This document shows, one piece after another, positions 1 to 59,035 of a DNA stretch of 59,035 bases. The first letter of the stretch is position 1, and every line of letters starts with the position of its first letter. The translations under genes and the position numbers were made by a program. Source of the DNA: a virus; IMG/VR virus record IMGVR_UViG_3300015245_000041, positions 1-59,035 of that record, one strand, 5' to 3'. Under the pieces are notes generated by a model. It ran no database searches, was not told the DNA's origin, and saw nothing but the letters and a program-made list of their open reading frames with translations.

Positions 1-77
1 ACTCGAACTATTACTGGTTATCCAACCGCTCAAGCTACTATACTTCTTTCTGGTCATGTACTATTAGCGGGTGTTCC
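1..77. repeat. Left copy of 77-bp terminal direct repeat (circle junction)
   Basis: Bases 1-77 are identical to 58959-59035. A perfect end-to-end overlap of exactly 77 bases is what a de Bruijn assembler with k=77 leaves on a closed circular path. The coding frame is continuous across it. It therefore most likely marks a circularly permuted or circular-mapping complete genome, not a physical terminal repeat; the latter would normally be longer and lie outside a tail gene. Confidence 0.95.
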
Positions 78-3939: not shown

Positions 3940-4374
3940 ATGTTGATGCCCATAGCTGAAGGTGCTGTAGCTACTGGTAGTATTTGGGGAGTAATCGGTC
4001 TTATTGTTACGGGATTGATCGGATTAGGAACAACCCTGGTCCAAGATCGTCGAAGACGACGAGAGGAACTCGAAGATAAGGGTTCCATACAGCCCAAGCA
4101 TGCGGAACGAAGTTCTGAAAGGATTGCTGCAACAACTGCTAGTAATGAAATCTTGGGATACTTAACTGAGCATATCATAACTCCTTTACGTAATGACTTA
4201 GAAGAAGCTCGGAAGAAAATTGAAGAACTTCAGACTCAAAATGCCCGTAAAGATGAACAGCTTAACGAAGCTCATGCTCTGGTGAGAGATTTGAATGTTA
4301 AGATTATCTCGTTTCAGGCTCAGGTTGCTATCTTGTTAGAGCAACTAGGAGGTGTTAGAGATGACCGAGGATGA
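3940..4374 (+). CDS. Small membrane protein with coiled coil, lysis cassette (DUF2746-like)
   Basis: 144 aa, with ATG at 3940 or 3946. One N-terminal membrane segment (about residues 12-32, 'IWGVIGLIVTGLIGLGTTLV') is followed by a strongly basic stretch (RRRRREEL) and then a long charged coiled coil (about 65-140). This layout resembles the DUF2746-type proteins of actinophage lysis regions. It precedes the collagen-like, hydrolase and holin-like genes and overlaps the next start by 14 bases. It may be a holin-associated or anti-holin protein; that is inference from position and topology. Confidence 0.6.
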   Translation: MLMPIAEGAVATGSIWGVIGLIVTGLIGLGTTLVQDRRRRREELEDKGSIQPKHAERSSERIAATTASNEILGYLTEHIITPLRNDLEEARKKIEELQTQNARKDEQLNEAHALVRDLNVKIISFQAQVAILLEQLGGVRDDRG

Positions 4375-5152
4375 AGGCTTGGATTTGATTCAGGAAGTCC
4401 AGAGCCATGTTGATAAAGAAATTATTCCCAATGCAACTAGAACTGCTAGATTAGCGGTTATTCAACAAAGAAGACGTCGAAGAATTATGTGGGGTATTCT
4501 CTTCGGCATAGCCACTATAGCTCTCATTGTAATCTTTGAAGCTCAAGTTCTTCACGCTAGTAGTCTTCAAACAGGTAAAAATAAAGCCGAAAGTTCAGCT
4601 ACTTCTAATGGTGCTATAGTTAGTGCACAAGCTCCTGTAATCCAAAATGGTCAGGCAGTTGCGAGCTCTGTTACTAAAGTTTGTCAATCAGCCTCTGGCC
4701 GTGTTATATTACGGAAGATAGGTATTTCTTGTTCTCAGGCTTCGGTAGTAGCTACTGCTACACCCAGTATTCCTTCAGCGGGGCTCCCAGGAGCGAATGG
4801 GGCACAAGGACCTCAGGGACTTCAGGGTATCCCAGGAGCACCCGGAGCTCAAGGTATCCCTGGAGGACCAGGTAAACCCGGACCATCTGGACCTACAGGT
4901 GCATCCGGACAGACTATCACTGGTCCAGCAGGGGAGAATGGAGAGCAGGGTAGTACTGGACCTATGGGACTTTCTGGTGTTAACGGTAAAGATGGGGTTA
5001 ACGGAGTTGATGGCAAAGATGGTGTTAATGGAACAAATGCCCCCACAATCGTGGGAGTAAAAGAAGATATGGGGACATGTATGATTACTCTTACTCTATC
5101 TGATAATAGTGAAATCAGTGGACCTATTACTGGCACTTTGACGTGTCCCTAG
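4361..5152 (+). CDS. Membrane-anchored collagen-like repeat protein
   Basis: 263 aa from the ATG at 4361, chosen because a perfect AGGAGG lies at 4347-4352. A cytosolic head (about 1-42, ending RRRR) leads into one membrane segment (about 44-64, 'GILFGIATIALIVIFEAQVL'). An outer linker follows, then about 28 Gly-X-Y triplets (about residues 138-225, e.g. 'GPQGLQGIPGAPG' and 'GKDGVNGVDGKDG'), and a short C-terminal cap with two cysteines. Collagen-like triplets occur in phage fibres, but a type II membrane anchor in a lysis operon is unusual. It could be a wall-spanning spanin-like rod, a surface-display protein or a virion fibre. Confidence 0.8.
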   Translation: MTEDEGLDLIQEVQSHVDKEIIPNATRTARLAVIQQRRRRRIMWGILFGIATIALIVIFEAQVLHASSLQTGKNKAESSATSNGAIVSAQAPVIQNGQAVASSVTKVCQSASGRVILRKIGISCSQASVVATATPSIPSAGLPGANGAQGPQGLQGIPGAPGAQGIPGGPGKPGPSGPTGASGQTITGPAGENGEQGSTGPMGLSGVNGKDGVNGVDGKDGVNGTNAPTIVGVKEDMGTCMITLTLSDNSEISGPITGTLTCP

Positions 5153-5167: not shown

Positions 5168-6424
5168 ATGACTAATACTCTTGAACCCGGAGCTAGAGAG
5201 CATTATCTCAGTCGACTTGATGCTGGCGAGATACTAGCTCATAGTCGAGAATGGTATGAAGCTGATGGTTCAGTGGAATTATCGGAAGAAGATAATAATC
5301 GACTTGCAAGTCGACTAGAACAAAAGGCAGTACCTGCTCTTGGGTATTGGTTGGATTGGTCAGGTGCTCGACCCAACCTTACTGTAGCTAAACAGACTGG
5401 GGCTAGAGGTGTATCTCGTTATATAGCACCTGACATTGCTTCGACTGCCTGGAAGCGACTGGGAACTGCTGAGCGTGATCAGATCTTGAAGGTACTCGGC
5501 GATCTTGAGCTTAACTGGGAATGGTATGCAGGTCGATGTCTAGAGGGTGCTGTCGCTGGTCATGCTGATGGTAAAATGATCCTTAAGGCCGCTCAAGCTC
5601 TTAGCTATCCCCATGGTCGAGTCATCCCAGTTAGTCATGATATCGGGACAAACAATGATGTAGCTGTAATTGCTTACTTTAAAGCAGTTAAAGCTGAGCA
5701 GAATGGTATCTATGGGATTACCCCTTATGGATCATTCCACACAGCAACCGTAATTACTCCTGCCGCAGGTCTAATCAATGTCCCCTGGCAAACAGCAGCT
5801 TGGTCTAGTCGTCAAAAAGCTACTAATGCTGCCAAGTATCAGAATACTAACCAGTGGTTTAATGGCACAGTGGATGAGAATGAGATCTGGAAGATGCCTT
5901 TCGGATCTTGGAATCACCCTCTCATTGTACCTAAGCCTCCTGCTCCTCCATCCTCAGGTCCAATTGATTTTGCGAAGGTGGTTGCTTTGTATAAAACCCA
6001 GGCTGAGTTCGAAGCCGCAGTAGAAAGTCAAGTTTTAAATGTTATTAGTTCTGCACTATGGGGTGATCCCCGAGGACTAACTCCTGCACAGATGTGGACA
6101 CTTACTCATGGTCGACCGTCATTAGGTGTTTATGATGGTATGAGCACCTTCTCGCGGGGTCGTTATGTTCGATTTCCTAAAGACCTTAAGTCGCCAACTG
6201 CTATCTATGAGAAGGTCGGAGATAAACTTCTCTGGCTATCAGCCACTGATTGGAAGGAACTCAACACTCCCTTCGCTCTGCTTCCCGTCGTGGATCATTC
6301 CATCACAGGAAATGTTTACAAGCTCTCGGTTGCAGATGGAACTACTGATCCTCGCCAAGCTGTTGTTGGTGTGGAACTACTCAATTATGATGAGGTGAAT
6401 GAAGATGAGGCTCCTACTACGTAG
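5168..6424 (+). CDS. Endolysin-type protein with DUF1906 (Rv2525c-like glycoside hydrolase-like) domain
   Basis: 418 aa. The central region (about 60-240) has the DUF1906 signature: 'GYWLDWSGARP', 'RGVSRYIAPD', a predicted barrel core ('ELNWEWYAGR', 'HADGKMILKAAQAL', 'VIPVSHDIGTNND', 'IYGITPYGSFH') and the terminal 'WQTAAWSSRQ'. Family members are TIM-barrel proteins thought to act on the actinobacterial envelope. No signal peptide is visible, so export would depend on the neighbouring holin. The C-terminal 150 aa are of unknown function. It sits between the collagen-like gene and the holin-like gene, whose start it overlaps. Likely one of two wall-degrading enzymes of the phage. Confidence 0.75.
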   Translation: MTNTLEPGAREHYLSRLDAGEILAHSREWYEADGSVELSEEDNNRLASRLEQKAVPALGYWLDWSGARPNLTVAKQTGARGVSRYIAPDIASTAWKRLGTAERDQILKVLGDLELNWEWYAGRCLEGAVAGHADGKMILKAAQALSYPHGRVIPVSHDIGTNNDVAVIAYFKAVKAEQNGIYGITPYGSFHTATVITPAAGLINVPWQTAAWSSRQKATNAAKYQNTNQWFNGTVDENEIWKMPFGSWNHPLIVPKPPAPPSSGPIDFAKVVALYKTQAEFEAAVESQVLNVISSALWGDPRGLTPAQMWTLTHGRPSLGVYDGMSTFSRGRYVRFPKDLKSPTAIYEKVGDKLLWLSATDWKELNTPFALLPVVDHSITGNVYKLSVADGTTDPRQAVVGVELLNYDEVNEDEAPTT

Positions 6425-6836
6425 TTTAACTTACATTCTATTCATCTACACCTGTTTCATCCTAGCCCCTATCAGTTCGTTTGCTGATACAGTAGATACT
6501 CGAACTGGTCCTTTAGTAGTTTTTGGTATCGTAGTAGATACAGCCTTTATGCTTGCTTTGATTACTGGTACTATCATTCCTCTAGTGTCTTCTTTGCTTA
6601 GTAAAACCCATTGGTCATCGGGAGTTACTGGAGTTATCACTATGGCTTTAGCGGCGATTAGTGGATTCTTTACAGAGTGGGCTCAGTCTTCAAATGCCAG
6701 TCACTATGACTGGAAACATGCTGTACTTATTGCTATCGGTACTCTTCTTATGGCATTCTTAGGTCGTAACGTAGCTTGGAAGGGTTCCAAGACTGATGCC
6801 AAATTGTTGGCGATTGGGTCGGGTAAAGTAGCATGA
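6399..6836 (+). CDS. Holin-like membrane protein
   Basis: 145 aa (ATG at 6399; ATG 6405 also possible, preceded by GAGGTGA). The N-terminus looks like a signal or anchor sequence ('LTYILFIYTCFILAPISSFA'). Two or three further membrane segments follow (about 42-66, 74-95 and 109-127), and the tail is basic. Size, topology and location between two putative wall hydrolases support a holin that opens the membrane for the lysins. It overlaps the upstream gene by 26 bases and the downstream peptidase by ATGA. It could also be a general phage membrane protein. Confidence 0.65.
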   Translation: MKMRLLLRSLTYILFIYTCFILAPISSFADTVDTRTGPLVVFGIVVDTAFMLALITGTIIPLVSSLLSKTHWSSGVTGVITMALAAISGFFTEWAQSSNASHYDWKHAVLIAIGTLLMAFLGRNVAWKGSKTDAKLLAIGSGKVA

Positions 6837-8787: not shown

Positions 8788-9093
8788 TTAGAGATCGATG
8801 CGCGCCATCAAAGCCTGCATAGTGTGGATCAATCCCTGAGCTTGGTTCTTGAGCTCCTGAAGTCGACCTGCTAATGAAGACTCCATAGCTTCCTGAGGTT
8901 CTGTTGCTCTCTTGACCTCAGGCTGTACTCCTAGGATAGGAGCCAATCGACCCTCAAGCTCAAGGATAGTCTTATGTAGCCTCTCGTGGGTAAGGCCAAT
9001 CTCATCGAGACGACCATCGAGCTTGCGTGTGCCGGTACTAAGTCGGTCCGAGTCGTCATCATCGAAACGAACTGCTTGACCTTGAGCACTCAT
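8788..9093 (-). CDS. Small coiled-coil protein of the replication block
   Basis: 101 aa, mostly heptad-like ('LDEIGLTHERLHKTILELEGRL', 'GRLQELKNQAQGLIHTMQALM'). Family not recognised. Its start abuts the stop of the ssDNA-binding-like gene (shared base at 9093), so it is translationally coupled and may be an oligomerising partner of that protein. Confidence 0.6.
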   Translation of the reverse strand: MSAQGQAVRFDDDDSDRLSTGTRKLDGRLDEIGLTHERLHKTILELEGRLAPILGVQPEVKRATEPQEAMESSLAGRLQELKNQAQGLIHTMQALMARIDL

Positions 9094-9818
9094 TACAGAT
9101 CCTCTATGTCGAGTTCTTCGAGCTCTTCGTCGGTTACCTTGGCCTTGCGCTTCTTACGCTTCGGCGGAGCGGGCTCTTCGTCTTCTTCATCCTCATCTTC
9201 ATCAGGCTCGGGCTCAGGAGCCTTCTTCTTGCGTCGTTTCTTTGCTACCGGAGGCGGCTCCTCCTCGTCTTCGTCCTCATCATCTTCGTCTTCATCCTCC
9301 TCTGGCTCTGGGGCAGCTTTACGCTTTACTCGGCGAGCTGGTGGAGCCTCTTCTTCCTCGTCTTCATCCTCTTCGTCCTCATCGTCAGTTGACTCAGTAT
9401 CCTCCATATCGGAGGGGGGGAAGATGCTGGCGATGGTGGACTTCATCTTGCCTTCGTACTCATCATCTTGGAGACTGATGGCGACAAGCTTTCCTACTAC
9501 CTTCTCCGGGTCAAGCTTGATTCGTTTCTTCGGAACATTGATACCACAAGACTGAAGAAGGTTGCGGATCTTCCAGAGTTGATTGGCATCCAGCTTGCAG
9601 TAGTAAGGGTACTTGGCAAGAGGATGAAGTTCAGGAGAAAGAATGAAGAGCCATTGAAAATCGCCCTTATTATCTCCACCCTTAACTTCCGCATCCTGAA
9701 CCGAAACGATGCGGGCAAGGTAGTCACCCTCCGCAACTCGTTTGGGGTTGATGCCACTTCTGGTAGCATCTTTAACATTGGTCATGTCAAGAGTTTTGAC
9801 AGATGCCTTTGTTGCCAT
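9093..9818 (-). CDS. Putative ssDNA-binding-like replication protein with charged tail
   Basis: 241 aa. The N-terminal 130 aa look like an OB-type or phage DNA-binding domain ('EGDYLARIVSVQDAEVKGG', 'GDFQWLFIL', 'NQLWKIRNLLQSCGI', 'VGKLVAISLQDDEYEGK'). The C-terminal 100 aa alternate acidic runs with basic runs and end with an acidic tip ('ELEELDIEDL'). Acidic tips are typical of SSBs that recruit partners. It lies directly after the RecA-like ATPase and Cas4-like nuclease, a common phage recombination trio. SSB function is inferred. Confidence 0.6.
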   Translation of the reverse strand: MATKASVKTLDMTNVKDATRSGINPKRVAEGDYLARIVSVQDAEVKGGDNKGDFQWLFILSPELHPLAKYPYYCKLDANQLWKIRNLLQSCGINVPKKRIKLDPEKVVGKLVAISLQDDEYEGKMKSTIASIFPPSDMEDTESTDDEDEEDEDEEEEAPPARRVKRKAAPEPEEDEDEDDEDEDEEEPPPVAKKRRKKKAPEPEPDEDEDEEDEEPAPPKRKKRKAKVTDEELEELDIEDL

Positions 9819-21974: not shown

Positions 21975-22577
21975 TTACTCGTCGTCGTCCAGCTCGAGCT
22001 CATCTTCGTCATCGTCATCTTCGACGACCGGAGCAGGCTTTGCCTTCTTCTTTTTGGTGGCCTTGACTCCCTGCTTGGCCTTCTCGGCTCGAATCTTCTC
22101 GTTGCGCTCCTTCAGCGCGTCGAGCTTCTCCTTCTTATCCTGGTCCAACTCCCCAGCGTTGAAAGCCTTGATGATGGCCTTGACCTCAGGATCCTTCGGT
22201 CCGCTCCAGTCATACCGAGCGCGGTTCCCGGCAACAATCTCCCGGTCGACTCGGCCCTTACCATCCCGGGCCATGCGACGAATCAGGTTGCGCAGTCCGC
22301 GGGCGTCAACCTTCTTGCCCGTGGTCTTGATCAGGTACTGCACCAGATCGCTGACTCCGAAGGTGACCTCCTGTTGAGCCCCGGTCTTCTTCTTGGTCTT
22401 CGACTTGGGAGCGACCTCTTCGACCTCGTCCTCTTCGAGCTCCTCGAGATCCTCGTCCTCGTCGTCCTCAACTTCGTCCTCTTCGACCTCGTCATCTACT
22501 TCGAGCTCTTCGACCTCAGCTTCGACCTTCTTGGCTGGAGCCTTCTTGGCTGGCCGGCGTTTCGTAGCAGTCGCCAC
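21975..22577 (-). CDS. DNA-binding-like protein with Lys/Ala-rich head, acidic middle and G-x-RY domain
   Basis: 200 aa from a GTG at 22577, with AAGGAG at the right spacing. Basic head 'KRRPAKKAPAKK', a 50-aa acidic run, then a domain at about 70-130: 'FGVSDLVQYLIKTTGKKVD', 'LRNLIRRMARDGKG', 'AGNRARYDW'. The same helix-turn-helix-like plan (helix, LR-x3-R, then G-x-G/N-x-RY) is seen at 24307-24531 and 31906-32238. The tail is basic, then acidic. Probably nucleoid-associated or regulatory. Higher GC than its neighbours. Confidence 0.6.
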   Translation of the reverse strand: MATATKRRPAKKAPAKKVEAEVEELEVDDEVEEDEVEDDEDEDLEELEEDEVEEVAPKSKTKKKTGAQQEVTFGVSDLVQYLIKTTGKKVDARGLRNLIRRMARDGKGRVDREIVAGNRARYDWSGPKDPEVKAIIKAFNAGELDQDKKEKLDALKERNEKIRAEKAKQGVKATKKKKAKPAPVVEDDDDEDELELDDDE

Positions 22578-22715: not shown

Positions 22716-23564
22716 CTAGTGGCGATGACCCACCTTACGTCCCGCAAAAAGCAATCCACACCCCAGGACCAAAGCCAGCAAAGCTGATGCTAGAAAGCCT
22801 CCAACATTGCGAGGTCCAGTAGAAGCTAGAACAGGCTGGGCAGCAGGGGTTTCAGAGTTGGCTTGCACAACTACTGCATGATGTGTAGTCTTGGCATGAG
22901 TAGTTACGGGTGCACTATGAGTAGATGCGGAGGTACTGGGGTTAGATACTGGAGTACTGCTACTCGGAGTGGGGGTGGGAGTCTCAACGGGGCATTTCTT
23001 ACCCGTAATGTCTCCAGCACTGCCATCTTGACCGTCATTGTTATTAGAAGCATCTATCCATTTCTCAGAACAGGTTGTATATGTCCAAATATACTCATGG
23101 CCTTCACCATTACACCACTCGCCACCGGAGGCCTTAACCAATTCCTGAAGCCAGGTGCTAGTAGTAGTATCTGCCGAGGGTGAGACTAAAGCATCTAGAT
23201 TCAGATTTTTAGCAATGAAAGTCCAGTCATAAGTACCGTGAACTTCCCCAGTTGTTCCCGCGGTGAGAGAAACACCATCTCGAGGTGATAGGCTAGCAAG
23301 AGTAGTTAAAGTTCCGTCATCGGAGATGGTGGCAGTATAAGTATCTTCTGCTGTGCGGCAAACATGTGTCTTTCGAGTCAAGATCAATGTAGCCCAATCA
23401 CCATGATGACCACTATCAGGCCTAGTAGTCGGTGTGGAAGTATCACCGCACTGACCGACAGTCTGAGTAAGGGGGGGTGTAGCACTTGCAGAAGAGGCAA
23501 AAGTTACCCATCCCAATGCCAGCAAAGTTGCAGTCAATACCGCAGTAATGAACTTATTTCTCAT
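22716..23564 (-). CDS. Secreted surface protein with LAxTG sortase signal
   Basis: 282 aa. Signal peptide: basic start (MRNK), hydrophobic core to about 25, cleavage near 'SASA-TP'. An ectodomain (about 30-195) has paired cysteines ('GQCGDT', 'HVCRT', 'EWCNG', 'TTCSEK', 'KKCPVE'). A Ser/Thr/Pro-rich stalk follows (about 196-240), then 'LASTGP' (LAxTG), a hydrophobic helix and a basic tail (GRKVGHRH). This is a complete cell-wall sorting signal, and LAxTG is the preferred motif of actinobacterial class E sortases. A phage-encoded wall-anchored protein suggests surface alteration of the infected cell, e.g. superinfection exclusion. Start overlaps the upstream stop (ATGA). Confidence 0.9.
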   Translation of the reverse strand: MRNKFITAVLTATLLALGWVTFASSASATPPLTQTVGQCGDTSTPTTRPDSGHHGDWATLILTRKTHVCRTAEDTYTATISDDGTLTTLASLSPRDGVSLTAGTTGEVHGTYDWTFIAKNLNLDALVSPSADTTTSTWLQELVKASGGEWCNGEGHEYIWTYTTCSEKWIDASNNNDGQDGSAGDITGKKCPVETPTPTPSSSTPVSNPSTSASTHSAPVTTHAKTTHHAVVVQANSETPAAQPVLASTGPRNVGGFLASALLALVLGCGLLFAGRKVGHRH

Positions 23565-23749
23565 TTCTCCTCATTCATATCTATGGGGTTACCAAAACCA
23601 ATAGCCTTATCCATATACTTATATTCTTCTGGTACATCACCCCCTCTCAGGTATGCTCTAACTTCATTACGTTCTTTAGGACCAAAATCTCTACGGTATC
23701 GCCACCCTCTTACTACTCGCTTACGACGTTGAAGTTCTTCAGAAGTCAT
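23561..23749 (-). CDS. Small charged protein, unknown
   Basis: 62 aa, highly charged ('ELQRRKRVVRGWRYRRDFGP'; partial). Overlaps the surface protein start by four bases and the upstream gene by 11. Not recognised. Confidence 0.6.
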   Translation of the reverse strand: MTSEELQRRKRVVRGWRYRRDFGPKERNEVRAYLRGGDVPEEYKYMDKAIGFGNPIDMNEEK

Positions 23750-23927
23750 TGTTTTCCCTCCTCATTCTCTTGTAGTGCTCTATCCAACGGATTAAAGCCC
23801 TCGCCTCTTTAGGTTCCAAGGTTATCTTACCGAACTGAGAACCAAACTTTACTGCGAAGGGTTCATGTTTGTTGAGTAAAGCTGTTAACTCCTCGGTAGT
23901 TAGCTCAGTCAAGAATACCTTAGCCAT
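23739..23927 (-). CDS. Small protein, unknown
   Basis: 62 aa from the ATG at 23927, preferred over 23942 because GGGGAGATCTG precedes it. Contains 'LTELTTEELTALLNKHEPF' and 'KEARALIRWIEHYKRMR'. Not recognised; part of a coupled string of tiny genes. Confidence 0.6.
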   Translation of the reverse strand: MAKVFLTELTTEELTALLNKHEPFAVKFGSQFGKITLEPKEARALIRWIEHYKRMRRENNDF

Positions 23928-24141
23928 CAGATCTCCCCTCAATCACGCAGTCAAAAACGGATGGGTAATATTCACTTCTATTGTACGGGCTCCCGGGAAC
24001 TTGAACTTCGATCCTTCCACCTGAGGGTGGTTCAGGATTTTTACTGATCTGAATAAATACATAGTCATTACCTCTGAAATCTATGATCTTCTCTCCAGAC
24101 TTGACTACAGTTCCATCAGCACGAATCAGAGCATAAATCAT
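23920..24141 (-). CDS. Small beta-rich protein, unknown
   Basis: 73 aa ('MIYALIRADGTVVKSGE', 'PPSGGRIEVQVPG'). No family recognised. Four-base overlap with the upstream gene. Confidence 0.6.
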   Translation of the reverse strand: MIYALIRADGTVVKSGEKIIDFRGNDYVFIQISKNPEPPSGGRIEVQVPGSPYNRSEYYPSVFDCVIEGRSDG

Positions 24142-24314
24142 GTTAGATACCTCACTGTAGTTGAACTTACTCTGAGATAAAGGCCGGATTTAGTTTGATT
24201 TCCACACATGCAGCAAATTTCTTGAGTGGGGTTATCCATCTTAGTATCTACTGTGGGCTCTCCTCTTATGAGCTCTACCCAGCAGGGTCGACAGAAAGGC
24301 TGAGGCTTAATCAT
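24138..24314 (-). CDS. Small zinc-ribbon protein
   Basis: 58 aa from the ATG at 24314. 'MIKPQPFCRPCWVELIRGEP' and 'ICCMCGNQTKSGLYLRV' give two C-x2-C knuckles, and the end is 'TTVRYLT'. This type of two-knuckle protein is common in actinophages. The start sits inside the last codons of the upstream HTH gene. Confidence 0.7.
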   Translation of the reverse strand: MIKPQPFCRPCWVELIRGEPTVDTKMDNPTQEICCMCGNQTKSGLYLRVSSTTVRYLT

Positions 24315-24531
24315 GGTGTTTACCATTCCCATTTTGGTTTCGTGCTGCTTGCCACTCGAGGAAGGCTCCACGAATCTCAGCGAGCTCTGAAACTGGAAAT
24401 TCATACCGTGCACCTTGACCTACTGCCTCATAGGGGCTACCTTCGGAGCGAAGCCACTTCCTAAACACTTTAGGATCAGTGCCTATACGATGTGCTACCT
24501 GTTTGGCTCCGTAGGTTTTTTCATGGGTCAT
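24307..24531 (-). CDS. Small helix-turn-helix DNA-binding-like protein
   Basis: 74 aa. 'YGAKQVAHRIGTDPKVFRKWLRSEG', then 'VGQGARYEFPVSELAEI' and 'FLEWQAARN' (longer parts not quoted in full). A helix-turn-helix with the LR/G-x-G-x-RY plan shared with the proteins at 21975-22577 and 31906-32238. Candidate transcription regulator or DNA-bridging protein. AAGGAGG precedes the start; promoter at 24552-24580. Confidence 0.65.
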   Translation of the reverse strand: MTHEKTYGAKQVAHRIGTDPKVFRKWLRSEGSPYEAVGQGARYEFPVSELAEIRGAFLEWQAARNQNGNGKHHD

Positions 24532-24551: not shown

Positions 24552-24580
24552 ATGCTATAAGATTTTTGAGAGGTTGTCAA
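24552..24580 (-). promoter_or_regulatory. Promoter for the small HTH gene
   Basis: Minus strand TTGACA (24575-24580), 17 bases, TAGCAT (24552-24557). It lies within the 3' end of the small membrane-protein gene upstream. The -10 form TAGCAT recurs in the rightward block (32426 and 32791). Confidence 0.65.
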
Positions 24581-39847: not shown

Positions 39848-42364
39848 GTGGCGATTAGCTTCATTCGAGGTAACTTTCAGGACGATGGGGCTACTAGCGA
39901 GTCTTCTATCGTTTCTACGTTCGCCTCGAACAACGCCGGCAACCTGCTGATCGTCACTGTGGGGTTCCTAGACGCGGCTGGCACCGGGTTGGCCACGTCG
40001 ATCGTCGATACCGCAGGTAATACCTGGTTCCAGGCTGGGACGAAGGTTCGCAACGCAACTCAGCAATACGCACTTCAGACGTTCTATGCGTGGGGCTGTC
40101 GAGCTTCCGCTAGCACGAACACTGTCACAGCGACGTTGAGTACAGCGGAGACGTTCGTTCACCTACACCTGCAAGAATACCATTCTACAATTAGTTCATG
40201 GTTAACCGACCCGTTAGATAAGATATCATCGGGTACAGGTAGCGGTACTGCGATGACTGCTACTTCCGTAACCCCATTGAATAGTAACGAGCTAATATAT
40301 TCAGTAGGAGCATCGGGGTCAGGTAACGTCTCCGCTAGTGCGGGTATGACAATTCGTGAACCAGCTGCTGCAAATGCGTCGACTGGTTCAGCCGATTCAA
40401 TTCAGACAACTCCTACCGCTACATCTGGTCCTTTAACTGCGTCCGCATCTGGACAATGGGCACTTCAGCTGTCGACGTTTAGAGATGCTTCCCTTGCGCC
40501 GGTAGTCGTTAGTAGCGGGGCAATCGTTGATACCACTAGCCTCACGTACTCAGTCCCGGTGCCGACTGGCGTCGTAGCCGGATCGTTAATCGTCGCTTAC
40601 ATCTACGGAGCGTGGTTCAGCTCCACCACCCCGACAACGGCTGCGTTTACCCCCCCGGCTGGGCAAGGCTGGGTGATAAAAGACATCGTTAGCCATCTGC
40701 TCAACGGCCCTAACCAGCACGCGATGATCGTGGCCTACAAGTACGCCACAGGCGCAGATAGCGGTAGCTATTCATGGACTACCAACGCTCTTGGTGCCGT
40801 CGATCCGTCATTCTCCTCGGGTGTTGCGCTTCGGGTGACGGGCGGTGCGACTTCGGGTGACCCGTTCGCCGATGCAATCCAGAAAGGGTCCTCGGCTGAC
40901 GGGTCAAGCTCGGTTGTGGTGGCTTCGTTCACGCCCGGCGGCGACAGCACTTTGCTCGTAGGGTTCGCGGAAGACGCGAACGGCGCGACGGTTAGCCTGC
41001 CCGGTGGCTGGACATCACTGGCGACCAGCACGGGCGGCGGTGCGTCGGGCGGTTCGGTCCTGGGTGATCTCACCCAGAGCACTGCCGCAGCTACAGGCAC
41101 GTTGACCTTCACCAGTACCGACAGCACGTTCAGCAAGCTTGCCCTGGTCGGCACCTTCCGGGCGCCGGGCATCCCAAGCGGGCTACGTCCACCTCCATTC
41201 TTCCCGCCGCTACGTGCGCCCAAGTTCTACTTCCGCCGATCAGTTCAAGGTATTATCACAGTTGCTACTCAAACTGTTTCTTTTGCTATGACTGGAGCAG
41301 GTACTTTAGCTATTACTCCGGTAGATACGATATTACCAGTAATTTCTATGAGTGGTTCTAGTAGTTTAAGTATTTCGACAGTTGATACTATCACCTCGAC
41401 TGTTACTATGTCTAGTAGCGGATCTCTCGCTATAGTTGCTTTGGATATAGTCACTGGGGTAATTAGTTTTACCGGTAGTGGATCATTAAGTATTACTCCA
41501 TTGGTAACTAAGATTACTACTTTAACTATGAGTGGTATTGGAACCTTTAGTATTACTTCATTAGTAACTGAGATTACTGCTATAACTTTTAATGGCTCAA
41601 GTACATTAGCTATTGCTGGCATAGATACAGTTCTTAGTTTAGTTACTTTTACGAGTAGTGGAACCCTATCAATAACTCCATTGATTACTCACCTGACTAC
41701 AGTCGCGATGACTGGGTTGGGTAGTATGAGTATCACGGCGACAGATACCATCTTCTCAACAGTAACTATGTCTGGAATTGGATCTCTAGCAATAGCTATA
41801 TCTGGGATTCAAACTGCAGCAATAGCAATGAGCAGTTCAGGGTCACTAAGCATTACTACACTTATAACTGATATTGCTACAATTGCTATGACCGGTGGTG
41901 GCATCTTAACCATAGCTACGGTGGATGTGATATTCGCTATAGTTAGTATGGTCGGTAATGGTAGTCTAGTGATTACTCCCCTGGTTACTAAAATTGCTGT
42001 GATAGCAATGACTGGGTCTAGTAGTCTCTCGGTAACGGGCATTGTCCTCAAAACAACGACGATCGCGATGGTTGGTTCGGGTTCACTAGCGGTGATTGCG
42101 GTGGTTACTCGGATAGCTCTCATATCAATGACGGGTTCAACTAGCCTATCACTTGTTGGTGTGGATATTGTTATTGGGCTGATTACGATGTCTGGGTTTG
42201 GTGTCTTAGCTGTTGTTTTAACTCCAGGTTCTACAACTCCTATAGTTATTGTAGTAACGTTGGGGGCATTTGGATGGTTGGGTTCACTTGTATCACAACC
42301 AGTAAGAGACCTAGTTATGGGAGATAATCTATGGTCTGGACAGTTAGGGGCTCAGAATGGCTGA
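39848..42364 (+). CDS. Adhesin-like virion protein with sixteen 20-aa repeats
   Basis: 838 aa from a GTG at 39848. Two related beta-sandwich domains (about 1-215 and 216-445; e.g. 'NLLIVTVGFLDAAGTG', 'GNTWFQAG'; 'GSLIVAYIYGAWFSS') are followed by a Pro-rich hinge ('LRPPPFFPPLRAPK'). From residue 477 to 796 come sixteen uninterrupted repeats of exactly 20 residues with consensus x2-(I/V)-x-M-(T/S)-G-x-G-(S/T)-L-(S/A)-I-x4-(V/T)-x-I, probably a beta-solenoid or beta-roll. A 42-aa C-terminal cap ends the protein. The first part is built of GC-rich blocks (to about 40160, and 40530-41240); the repeat region is AT-rich. Probably a fibre or whisker attached to the head or tail. Confidence 0.75.
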   Translation: MAISFIRGNFQDDGATSESSIVSTFASNNAGNLLIVTVGFLDAAGTGLATSIVDTAGNTWFQAGTKVRNATQQYALQTFYAWGCRASASTNTVTATLSTAETFVHLHLQEYHSTISSWLTDPLDKISSGTGSGTAMTATSVTPLNSNELIYSVGASGSGNVSASAGMTIREPAAANASTGSADSIQTTPTATSGPLTASASGQWALQLSTFRDASLAPVVVSSGAIVDTTSLTYSVPVPTGVVAGSLIVAYIYGAWFSSTTPTTAAFTPPAGQGWVIKDIVSHLLNGPNQHAMIVAYKYATGADSGSYSWTTNALGAVDPSFSSGVALRVTGGATSGDPFADAIQKGSSADGSSSVVVASFTPGGDSTLLVGFAEDANGATVSLPGGWTSLATSTGGGASGGSVLGDLTQSTAAATGTLTFTSTDSTFSKLALVGTFRAPGIPSGLRPPPFFPPLRAPKFYFRRSVQGIITVATQTVSFAMTGAGTLAITPVDTILPVISMSGSSSLSISTVDTITSTVTMSSSGSLAIVALDIVTGVISFTGSGSLSITPLVTKITTLTMSGIGTFSITSLVTEITAITFNGSSTLAIAGIDTVLSLVTFTSSGTLSITPLITHLTTVAMTGLGSMSITATDTIFSTVTMSGIGSLAIAISGIQTAAIAMSSSGSLSITTLITDIATIAMTGGGILTIATVDVIFAIVSMVGNGSLVITPLVTKIAVIAMTGSSSLSVTGIVLKTTTIAMVGSGSLAVIAVVTRIALISMTGSTSLSLVGVDIVIGLITMSGFGVLAVVLTPGSTTPIVIVVTLGAFGWLGSLVSQPVRDLVMGDNLWSGQLGAQNG
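41275..42234 (+). repeat. 16 tandem 60-bp (20-codon) repeats
   Basis: In-frame repeats with no length variation. DNA identity between units is low while the protein pattern is kept, so these are old, selected repeats and not recent slippage products. Confidence 0.85.
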
Positions 42365-57187: not shown

Positions 57188-58080
57188 CAAACTTCGCTTC
57201 ATATTACTGGTTAGGTAAACCCGGGGGTCGGGTGGGAATGGTACAGGGTCCTTTAGTTAACGTAGGTACAACAATTCCTATGAATCGTGGCGAACAAAGT
57301 CATGATCTTATTAGTGGAGGCATTACTACATTTAAAGCCCCATTGACCAAAAGAGCATGGCAATTCCAGAGGGATTGGCTTTCTTCAGATGAGCAAGAAG
57401 TACTTAGAGGATTTTACTCAGGTCTATTCGATGTGGGTCCATTTCGGTTCTATGACCCAAGTGAAGTAAATCTACTAGATGAAGATGCTTCAACCTTTGG
57501 GCGAGCAACCAGTGACTTATCCTTTTGGAAACCCACAACTGCTACTTATGTAGCTGATACTGATACGTCCACACGAGACGTCGCTAATCTCTCAACTCGA
57601 GCTAGCGCGATGGTTCAACTATCAGCTATTACTGCGGCTGGAGGACTTGGTAGTAATAGTGCTTTGTTGCCTTTTAATGCTGTACCAGTTCTTACTGGCG
57701 CGGGCATGCCGTTCTCCTTTAGCATTTATGCTATTAAGACAGCAGGTACCGGTTCTCCAACTATTCAACTCTATGTTAAGGGTGCTAACACGGTTAGTGC
57801 GACGGCTGTTGCAGTAAGTACTTCTCTAACTCGATATACTTTAACTGCAACTGCTGCAGCACTGGGAGTATCTAATTACATCGATTGTGGTGTAGTTTTT
57901 CCCGTAGTTGGTACCGGATTAATAGTTAAACTATGTGCTCCCCAGCTTGAGATGGGAAGTATAGCTTCTCCCTATCGAATCGGGTATGGTGTGGCTTCAG
58001 TTTCATTTAATTCCGGAATAACTCAAACTGTACCAAGAACTAGATCTCATTCTGCTAGTTGGACATTGGCGGAAATCTGA
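57184..58080 (+). CDS. Distal tail protein (Dit-like) with carbohydrate-binding-type C-domain
   Basis: 298 aa, ATGA overlap with the tape measure. N-terminal half: 'ISGGITTFKAPLTKRAWQFQ', 'DVGPFRFYDPSEVNLL' (tail-ring type). C-terminal half: jelly-roll-like ('MPFSFSIYAIKTAGTGSPTI', 'LIVKLCAPQLEMGSIASPYR') with the 'PQLEMGSIASPY' segment found at the end of phage carbohydrate-binding modules. Stop and next start overlap (TGATG). Confidence 0.8.
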   Translation: MTNFASYYWLGKPGGRVGMVQGPLVNVGTTIPMNRGEQSHDLISGGITTFKAPLTKRAWQFQRDWLSSDEQEVLRGFYSGLFDVGPFRFYDPSEVNLLDEDASTFGRATSDLSFWKPTTATYVADTDTSTRDVANLSTRASAMVQLSAITAAGGLGSNSALLPFNAVPVLTGAGMPFSFSIYAIKTAGTGSPTIQLYVKGANTVSATAVAVSTSLTRYTLTATAAALGVSNYIDCGVVFPVVGTGLIVKLCAPQLEMGSIASPYRIGYGVASVSFNSGITQTVPRTRSHSASWTLAEI

Positions 58081-59035
58081 TGCAGATCAAATCTAGTAAC
58101 TGGCATAAGGTAGTAGAAGGTAATGAAATTCCCTATGATTGCTTAGTGGAAATTACGGCATTAGGTCGTAATGCGGCTATAGCTGGTTTAGGGGGATATG
58201 TTAGTACTCCCGATAGCTCAAGTATTAGTATAGTTGGGGATATTGATATTCGGGTGGAATTTGCTTTGGATCAGAGTGCTGTTGGTCAAACAGTTATGCT
58301 AGCATCTAAAGGTACATTTGGTGGTTCTGCTACAGATACAGAGTGGGTTTTATACTTAGTATGTACACAGGGTACTGGAGCATTTGCTAACCTGATTCTT
58401 GCTCAGGTATGGTTTCAGTGGTATGCCAATGGTACAACAGTTGTGGAGGTTGTAAATCCCGTAGGGTTGTACGTTGCCCCCGGTCAATCTACCGCAGTAA
58501 GAGTTACTCTTGATGTGGATAATGGTTCTGCACAACATGTGACTCAGATGTATATAGCTAATCACCTTGGGAACTTTATTACTGGGGGATATTCTGGTCC
58601 ATTTACTGTTACCACTGCCGGAGTTACTTCTATATTTAATGGGGCTGGAGATCTTCTTCTATGTAATACTAAATATGGTACTGGAGCTGCAATACCTACT
58701 TTAGGATCACCTCTATTCGGGGGGATTTTTAAGGTAGAACTAAGAAACGGAATAGCGGGAACTCTAGTTGCTAATCCCGATTTTACTGCTCAAACTAGAG
58801 ACTTACCTTTTACCGATTCAACTGGTACTGTGTGGACATTCGTCGGAGCTTACCTAGGTAGACGAGGTATTGATGAGGCTCTTGTAATAGATTTCTCAAG
58901 TATGGCTTTAGAGGCTGTGCAGATTCAACGTGATATGACAACGGATGTACCTGCCAACACTCGAACTATTACTGGTTATCCAACCGCTCAAGCTACTATA
59001 CTTCTTTCTGGTCATGTACTATTAGCGGGTGTTCC
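58080..59035 (+). CDS. Large minor tail / tail-tip protein, N-terminal part (continues at base 1)
   Basis: Frame open from the ATG at 58080 to the right end with no stop; it enters the first 77 bases in phase and continues to 2253. N-terminus 'MQIKSSNWHKVVEGNEIPYD', then a LamG-like stretch ('YVSTPDSSSISIVGDIDIRV', 'VRVTLDVDNGSAQHVTQMYI', 'GIFKVELRNGIAGTLV') with the hallmark of a concanavalin-like glycan-binding domain. Part of a 1,043-aa tail-tip protein with a second LamG-like region downstream. Confidence 0.85.
   Translation, partial: MQIKSSNWHKVVEGNEIPYDCLVEITALGRNAAIAGLGGYVSTPDSSSISIVGDIDIRVEFALDQSAVGQTVMLASKGTFGGSATDTEWVLYLVCTQGTGAFANLILAQVWFQWYANGTTVVEVVNPVGLYVAPGQSTAVRVTLDVDNGSAQHVTQMYIANHLGNFITGGYSGPFTVTTAGVTSIFNGAGDLLLCNTKYGTGAAIPTLGSPLFGGIFKVELRNGIAGTLVANPDFTAQTRDLPFTDSTGTVWTFVGAYLGRRGIDEALVIDFSSMALEAVQIQRDMTTDVPANTRTITGYPTAQATILLSGHVLLAGV
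58959..59035. repeat. Right copy of 77-bp terminal direct repeat
   Basis: Identical to bases 1-77; duplicates coding sequence of the large tail protein in the same phase. Should be trimmed once when closing the circle. Confidence 0.95.

What the first reader, a model, noticed from the sequence alone, without database searches (positions are those of the whole stretch)
22716..23564. Phage-encoded cell-wall-anchored protein with LAxTG sorting signal
Signal peptide, Cys-paired ectodomain, Ser/Thr/Pro stalk, LASTG, membrane helix and basic tail form a full sortase substrate matched to actinobacterial class E sortases. In a phage without lysogeny genes, expression from the early block suggests remodelling of the infected cell's surface, for instance blocking receptor access or retaining progeny.
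Basis: partly seen in the sequence, partly recalled or inferred. Interest (0 to 1): 0.7.

Follow-up and report, generated by a model that had tools for sequence, protein, structure and literature searches.

The report
Phage protein for host wall anchoring
A soil phage with no sign of a dormant life style carries a gene for a protein built to be exported and bolted onto its actinobacterial host's cell wall by the host's own enzyme; many other lytic phages of such bacteria carry look-alikes with different outer parts, which suggests a common but apparently undescribed way for phages to recoat the cell they are infecting.

Summary
ORF 22716-23564 (minus, 282 aa) has a signal peptide, a 165-residue ectodomain, a Ser/Thr/Pro stalk, LASTG, a membrane helix and RKVGHRH. 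It is not chance: the only detected relative, in an 80.9-kb viral contig, keeps 71% of the ectodomain (dN 0.21, dS saturated), replaces what follows, and again ends LANTG-helix-basic tail. The window is a complete circular genome (77-bp end repeat) without tyrosine or serine integrase. The gene lies in the replication half, in a short operon.

The wider result is that such proteins recur. Eight of 11 larger genomes in the window's terminase group carry one LAxTG protein, as do Curtobacterium phages Yappy, Kithara, Sunfish and Microbacterium phages Kozie, MO526, A3Wally, FuzzBuster, Magritte, Pumpernickel. They are filed as 'hypothetical' or 'membrane protein'; ectodomains differ. LA.TG exceeds every permuted motif. 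None of 11 phages tested encodes a sortase; mycobacteriophage and T4 controls have no such protein.

Best reading: an early-made protein linked to the infected cell's wall by the host's class E sortase, acting most likely as an anti-adsorption or superinfection-exclusion coat. Export and anchoring are well supported by sequence; the function is inferred and untested. No earlier report was found in the library searched.

The parts
22716..23564 (-). Gene for the wall-anchor-type surface protein (282 aa)
   Evidence: ectodomain relative in IMGVR_UViG_3300020034_000007
23481..23564 (-). Signal peptide, residues 1-28 (MRNKFITAVLTATLLALGWVTFASSASA)
   Evidence: charge and hydrophobicity pattern, A-S-A/T cleavage site; no dedicated predictor was available
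22986..23480 (-). Ectodomain, residues 29-193, five conserved Cys, net charge -11
   Evidence: dN 0.21 with dS saturated; no Pfam, PHROG or PDB relative
22830..22985 (-). Ser/Thr/Pro-rich stalk, residues 194-245
   Evidence: composition
22815..22829 (-). LASTG sortase motif, residues 246-250
22740..22805 (-). Hydrophobic helix of the sorting signal, residues 254-275
22719..22739 (-). Basic cytoplasmic tail RKVGHRH, residues 276-282
23561..23749 (-). Upstream small gene (62 aa) whose stop overlaps the start of the surface-protein gene (ATGA): likely translational coupling, same operon
   Evidence: sequence
23739..24531 (-). Further small genes of the same leftward operon (23739-23942, 23920-24141, 24138-24413, 24307-24531; the last is HTH-like)
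24552..24580 (-). Sigma-70-like promoter TTGACA-17-TAGCAT ahead of that operon
   Evidence: consensus match only

Best explanation
It is a phage-encoded substrate of the host's class E sortase. Step 1 (inferred from position and promoter-like sites): it is made early or mid infection, as last gene of a short leftward operon in the replication half. Step 2 (strongly indicated by sequence): the signal peptide exports it and is removed. Step 3 (strongly indicated, not shown): the C-terminal helix and basic tail hold it in the membrane, the host's class E sortase cuts between Thr and Gly of LASTG and links it to peptidoglycan, and the stalk carries the ectodomain through the wall. Step 4 (inferred): the ectodomain covers or alters what phages bind at the cell surface, so that further phages do not adsorb or inject and progeny are not lost on already infected cells and wall debris. 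This is the job that Llp of T5 and Ltp of TP-J34 do from a lipid anchor, done here from a wall anchor with a borrowed host enzyme.
For: Complete sorting-signal anatomy. The anchor is kept in the one relative although the stretch before it has been replaced. Purifying selection on the ectodomain. The relative's phage shares with the window, among the few genes in common, lysis-region genes including the endolysin (56%) and this surface protein (70%), while the primase is not found there; it is also the only viral contig found by the endolysin pattern scan, so the protein seems to travel with the host's wall. LAxTG proteins with signal peptides recur in actinophages with unrelated ectodomains, one per genome in those scanned whole; permuted motifs do not. 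In the terminase relatives the gene lies 7-11 kb upstream of the terminase gene on its strand, outside the structural genes. Kithara's lies between SSB and helicase genes. None of 11 phages encodes a sortase. LAXTG is the class E signal of soil and freshwater actinobacteria (PMC5148588). Exclusion proteins made early by lytic phages against adsorption to infected cells and debris are established (PMC9586334), and surface lipoproteins for exclusion are known in Gram-positive phages (PMC3952083).
Against: No experiment shows export, anchoring or exclusion. The host is unknown, so its sortase could not be checked; the window's G+C (47%) is lower than that of its cultured relatives (58%). The window's own sorting signal is below both NCBIfam cut-offs. 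The ectodomain has no known relative or fold, so nothing in it points to receptor or glycan binding. Three larger terminase relatives (G005, G006, G007) lack such a protein, so it is dispensable. In a short lytic cycle little protein may be wall-linked before lysis.
Confidence: 0.5

Rival explanations
1. It is wall-anchored as described, but its job is not exclusion: the ectodomain acts outward, for instance clumping or attaching infected cells, holding released virions or debris nearby, or neutralising an external threat.
For: Some sister proteins are long and repetitive with high-confidence elongated beta modules (pLDDT 93.5) and Excalibur or Pro/Thr-rich parts, the build of bacterial adhesins; weak structural likeness to SasG and TSR modules (Z 3-3.5).
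Against: The window's protein has a short ectodomain and none of those modules; the Z values are at background level; the benefit to a lytic phage is less plain.
Confidence: 0.25
2. It is a secreted type I membrane protein that stays in the membrane; LASTG is not processed. It acts at the membrane-wall boundary, for instance on lysis timing or against injection of DNA.
For: A signal peptide plus C-terminal helix alone give this topology; the score of the window's anchor is under the NCBIfam cut-offs.
Against: LA.TG is kept in nearly every related protein while ectodomains and stalks change; permuted motifs are rare; basic tails as in sorting signals.
Confidence: 0.15
3. It is a moron picked up from a host surface protein, with no role in the lytic cycle.
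For: Patchy distribution; one per genome; ectodomains change between phages.
Against: No bacterial or plasmid relative was found; strong purifying selection; recurrence in many lytic-type phages.
Confidence: 0.07
4. It is a virion or tail component with a membrane segment.
For: Several actinophage tail proteins are hard to recognise by sequence (own knowledge; no tool result speaks for it here).
Against: It lies on the other strand and about 20 kb from the head and tail genes; virion proteins are not known to need signal peptides; sister genes lie among replication or small early-type genes.
Confidence: 0.03

Closest known systems
Class E sortase substrates of actinobacteria (LAXTG proteins such as the chaplins ChpA-C of Streptomyces coelicolor; NCBIfam NF041528, NF058582, TIGR01167)
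   Same: Signal peptide, LAxTG, C-terminal hydrophobic helix and basic tail
   Different: Encoded by a lytic-type phage; unrelated ectodomain; the window's signal scores below the curated cut-offs although its relative's passes one
Llp of coliphage T5 (and Cor proteins): early lipoproteins of lytic phages that block the receptor FhuA
   Same: Proposed job: early surface protein of a lytic phage against superinfection and loss of progeny on debris
   Different: Llp is a small outer-membrane lipoprotein of a Gram-negative host; no lipobox here and no shown sequence likeness; exclusion untested
Ltp of Streptococcus thermophilus phage TP-J34: surface-exposed exclusion lipoprotein of a Gram-positive host
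   Same: Phage-encoded, exported, host surface exposed
   Different: Temperate phage and lipid anchor there; wall anchor and no integrase here; target unknown here, tape measure protein there
LAxTG proteins of cultured actinophages (Shrew gp28, Yappy gp103, Kithara gp65, Sunfish gp106, Kozie gp78, A3Wally gp278, FuzzBuster gp74, Magritte gp249, Pumpernickel gp243, Triscuit gp17)
   Same: The same architecture at the C-terminus, usually with signal peptide and stalk
   Different: Unrelated or modular ectodomains; filed as hypothetical or membrane protein, with no role proposed

Membership tests
LAxTG sortase substrate (class E type) | N-terminal signal peptide | tested here: met
   Residues 1-28: basic start, hydrophobic core, ASA|TP; rule-based, no dedicated predictor
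LAxTG sortase substrate (class E type) | LAxTG followed by hydrophobic helix and basic tail at the extreme C-terminus | tested here: met
   LASTG 246-250, helix 254-275, RKVGHRH 276-282; kept in the relative as LANTG; permutation control
LAxTG sortase substrate (class E type) | Profile score above the curated cut-off of an NCBIfam sorting-signal model | tested here: inconclusive
   Window protein below (NF058582 15.1-19.5 v. 27; TIGR01167 8.7 v. 15.9); relative L002 above TIGR01167 (16.4; 21 at genome scale)
LAxTG sortase substrate (class E type) | Host encodes a class E sortase | not tested
   Host unknown and no bacterial relative to name it; the phages themselves have no sortase
LAxTG sortase substrate (class E type) | Covalent link to peptidoglycan | not testable with these tools
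   Needs cell-wall fractionation
Superinfection-exclusion lipoproteins (Llp, Cor, Ltp) | Lipobox with lipidated Cys at the signal-peptide cleavage site | tested here: not met
   No Cys before residue 39; cleavage site ASA|TP
Superinfection-exclusion lipoproteins (Llp, Cor, Ltp) | Blocks adsorption or DNA entry | not testable with these tools
   Needs adsorption and superinfection assays
Virion structural protein | Gene in the head and tail module | tested here: not met
   Head and tail genes lie at about 42-59 kb and 0-4 kb on the plus strand; this gene is at 22.7-23.6 kb on the minus strand among replication-half genes
Temperate phage moron | Carried by a phage with an integrase | tested here: not met
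   No PF00589 or PF00239 match in the circular genome; a small excisionase/HTH-like protein exists (24307-24531)

The most novel reading that the evidence does not exclude
Lytic actinophages of many clusters share a general strategy: each carries one fast-changing, modular surface protein that borrows the host's class E sortase to re-coat the wall of the infected cell and shut out other phages. It would be a wall-anchored counterpart of lipoprotein superinfection exclusion, unnoticed because the ectodomains share no sequence.
Probability: 0.4. Interest if true: 0.8.

Novelty: new variant of a known kind. Interest (0 to 1): 0.62.

Why it matters
If true, phages of soil actinobacteria do not only enter and burst the cell but redecorate its wall with the host's own sortase while they grow. 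That would give a testable function to a set of genes now filed as 'membrane protein' or 'hypothetical' in many Microbacterium and Curtobacterium phages, offer a simple sequence signature (signal peptide, stalk, LAxTG anchor) to find more, and bear on how phages compete for the same hosts.

Tried and rejected
Fold of the ectodomain: AlphaFold2 on the two-sequence alignment failed (pLDDT 32), so no fold search was made for it. Relatives of the ectodomain in Pfam, PHROGs, PDB, cultured phages, plasmids and 84,980 bacterial and archaeal species: none; the genome scans use short exact patterns and would miss distant relatives. Common ancestry of this ectodomain with the Shrew/Yappy/Kithara/Sunfish domain: not supported (hhalign probability 0.4%). 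Phage-encoded sortase: none. Bacterial source of the Shrew-type domain or of A3Wally's protein: none found. Using an NCBIfam anchor model alone as classifier: rejected, since TIGR01167 rings in all 14 control genomes, 9 over the cut-off, in six-frame search. The repeat module shared by A3Wally, L038/L144, L018, Magritte and others folds confidently but has no Foldseek match in the PDB with E below 0.14 and only background Z scores (TSR domains 3.5, SasG 3.2), so nothing was built on it. Literature: searches found no report of LAxTG or LPXTG proteins in lytic actinophages; most subscription journals are not held.

Full report
What is there. The window is a virus record of 59,035 bases. Its first and last 77 bases are identical, and a tail gene that starts at 58,080 runs through the junction in frame into the ORF that ends at 2253, so it is best read as a complete circular map of about 58,958 bp. 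Nearest cultured phages by terminase and DNA polymerase are Curtobacterium phage Shrew (66%, 55%) and Microbacterium phages Triscuit and Huwbert (60%, 53%). No tyrosine or serine recombinase was found.

The protein. ORF 22716-23564 (minus) encodes 282 aa. It reads as signal peptide 1-28, ectodomain 29-193 with five Cys, stalk 194-245, LASTG, helix 254-275 and RKVGHRH. Its start overlaps the stop of the gene before it (ATGA) and has a GAGGAG ribosome site. The operon is headed by a TTGACA-17-TAGCAT site, and a similar site (TTGACA-17-TAGATT) stands after the gene, ahead of the next leftward gene. These are consensus matches only: nine promoter-like sites against 5.1 expected, standard deviation 1.9. 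Position and promoters suggest early or middle expression; this is inference.

Is it real. One relative was found in 2.9 million viral contigs, in IMGVR_UViG_3300020034_000007, 80.9 kb. It has 71% amino-acid and 65% nucleotide identity over the ectodomain, dN 0.21 with dS saturated, so the protein sequence is under purifying selection. After the ectodomain the two differ: the relative has about 85 extra residues and another stalk, yet ends LANTG, helix, RGRHHH. Retention of the anchor across a swap of the middle is the best evidence that the anchor works. The relative's phage has no detectable copy of the window's primase and was not among the terminase relatives, but shares lysis-region genes: an endolysin at 56%, and proteins like 3940-4374, 4352-5152 and 6399-6836 at 30-48%. 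It was also the only viral contig found by the endolysin scan. Two wall-directed genes thus travel together, which suggests a shared type of host wall. Pattern scans find close relatives only.

The wider class. Among genomes picked only by terminase likeness, a scan of all six frames found LA.TG proteins of the same build in G008 (LAYTG), G009 and G010 (LATTG, same protein), G011 (LAATG), G012 (LACTG), Shrew gp28 (LAYTG) and Triscuit gp17 (LATTG; 97 aa, no clear signal peptide). With the window that is 8 of 11 genomes of 39 kb or more that were read whole or nearly so; G005, G006 and G007 have none. In the seven relatives the gene lies 7-11 kb upstream of the terminase gene on its strand; in the window it lies elsewhere. 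Homology from these proteins then led to Yappy gp103, Kithara gp65 (LAYTG), Sunfish gp106 (LAFTG), Kozie gp78, MO526 and the 195-kb phage A3Wally (LAQTG), FuzzBuster gp74 and Pumpernickel gp243 (LATTG), Magritte gp249 (LAATG), and further IMG/VR contigs (LATTG, LAHTG, LAYTG; one LPVTG). In SM23 the reading frame leaves the pattern right after LATTG. These proteins are annotated as hypothetical, membrane or, for Sunfish, 'glycosyl hydrolase membrane' protein. None of those scanned has a PHROG, and apart from an Excalibur domain in A3Wally none reaches a Pfam cut-off.

Chance control. In the first data set, which holds the terminase relatives, the window and its relative, LA.TG stood before a C-terminal helix in 6 ORFs (5 with signal peptide), while the other 71 permutations of the motif together gave 8 (4). 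In the larger set the figures are 13 (12) against 29 (14) for 71 permutations, the highest single one being 3; this second set contains phages recruited through homology, so its count is not independent. Wollypog, Sparcetus, Zuko, Cleo, the mycobacteriophages FF47, TM4, Bxb1, and T4 gave none. TIGR01167 was over its cut-off in 6 of 22 phage records, all of them carriers, but the model also rings in control genomes.

Mechanism. None of the 11 phages tested encodes a sortase, so anchoring must use the host's. LAXTG is the signal of class E sortases of soil and freshwater actinobacteria, which anchor for instance the chaplins (PMC5148588). I therefore think it likely (about 0.85) that the protein is exported and sortase-anchored in the infected cell. 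What it does there is inferred. Lytic phages are known to make surface proteins early to stop adsorption to infected cells and debris (T5 Llp, PMC9586334), and Gram-positive phages use surface lipoproteins for exclusion (TP-J34 Ltp, PMC3952083). Location outside the structural genes, one copy per genome in those scanned, and turnover of ectodomains among phages of the same host genera fit exclusion or anti-adsorption (about 0.5). They also fit outward adhesion (about 0.25).

Limits. No host, no fold of the ectodomain, no dedicated signal-peptide predictor, no expression data. The window's own anchor scores below the curated cut-offs. The ectodomain is unrelated to the Shrew-type domain as far as can be seen, so the class is defined by architecture, not by descent. 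That the cultured carriers are lytic was not checked genome by genome.

Novelty. The parts are known: LAxTG anchors and phage exclusion proteins. I found no report that lytic actinophages carry sortase substrates; the searched library holds only openly licensed papers. I file it as a new variant of a known kind.

Noticed in passing
window 1-77 and 58959-59035: Exact 77-bp end repeat; a tail ORF (58080 to 2253) is continuous across it, so the window is a complete circular map although it could be taken for a fragment.
   Followed up: yes
window 5168-6424 and L149 10001-11350: The endolysin has a single close relative in the viral collection, in the same contig that holds the only relative of the surface protein; the two phages share few other genes.
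   Followed up: partly
window 4352-5152: Membrane protein with collagen-like Gly-X-Y repeats next to the endolysin; also shared (45%) with IMGVR_UViG_3300020034_000007.
   Followed up: no
window 39848-42364: 838-aa protein made largely of degenerate repeats like 'TMSGSGSLSIT', upstream of the terminase; no PHROG match.
   Followed up: no
window 9093-9818 and 21975-22577: Two proteins with long acidic Asp/Glu-rich stretches alternating with Lys/Arg; the second (next to the surface-protein gene) matches a PHROG of unknown function (1.5e-11).
   Followed up: no
L070 2782-3204, L139 2448-3299, L144 2998-3204, L141 2785-3213: A repeat module of about 70 aa (W-x-x-G-E-Y-x-C ... TR ... LT-x-x-E ... 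C) recurs in LAxTG proteins of several actinophages; it folds with pLDDT 93.5 as an elongated hairpin plus short helix without a clear PDB match.
   Followed up: partly
L146 2089-3771: A module-bearing phage protein that ends in LPVTG instead of LAxTG, perhaps for another sortase class.
   Followed up: no
L138 136-2073 (Microbacterium phage SM23): The protein runs into a different frame right after LATTG, so the membrane helix is lost; a sequencing error or a broken anchor.
   Followed up: no
whole window: G+C is 47%, against about 58% in the nearest cultured phages; two terminase relatives (G006, G012) are also at 46-48%, hinting at a lower-G+C actinobacterial host.
   Followed up: no
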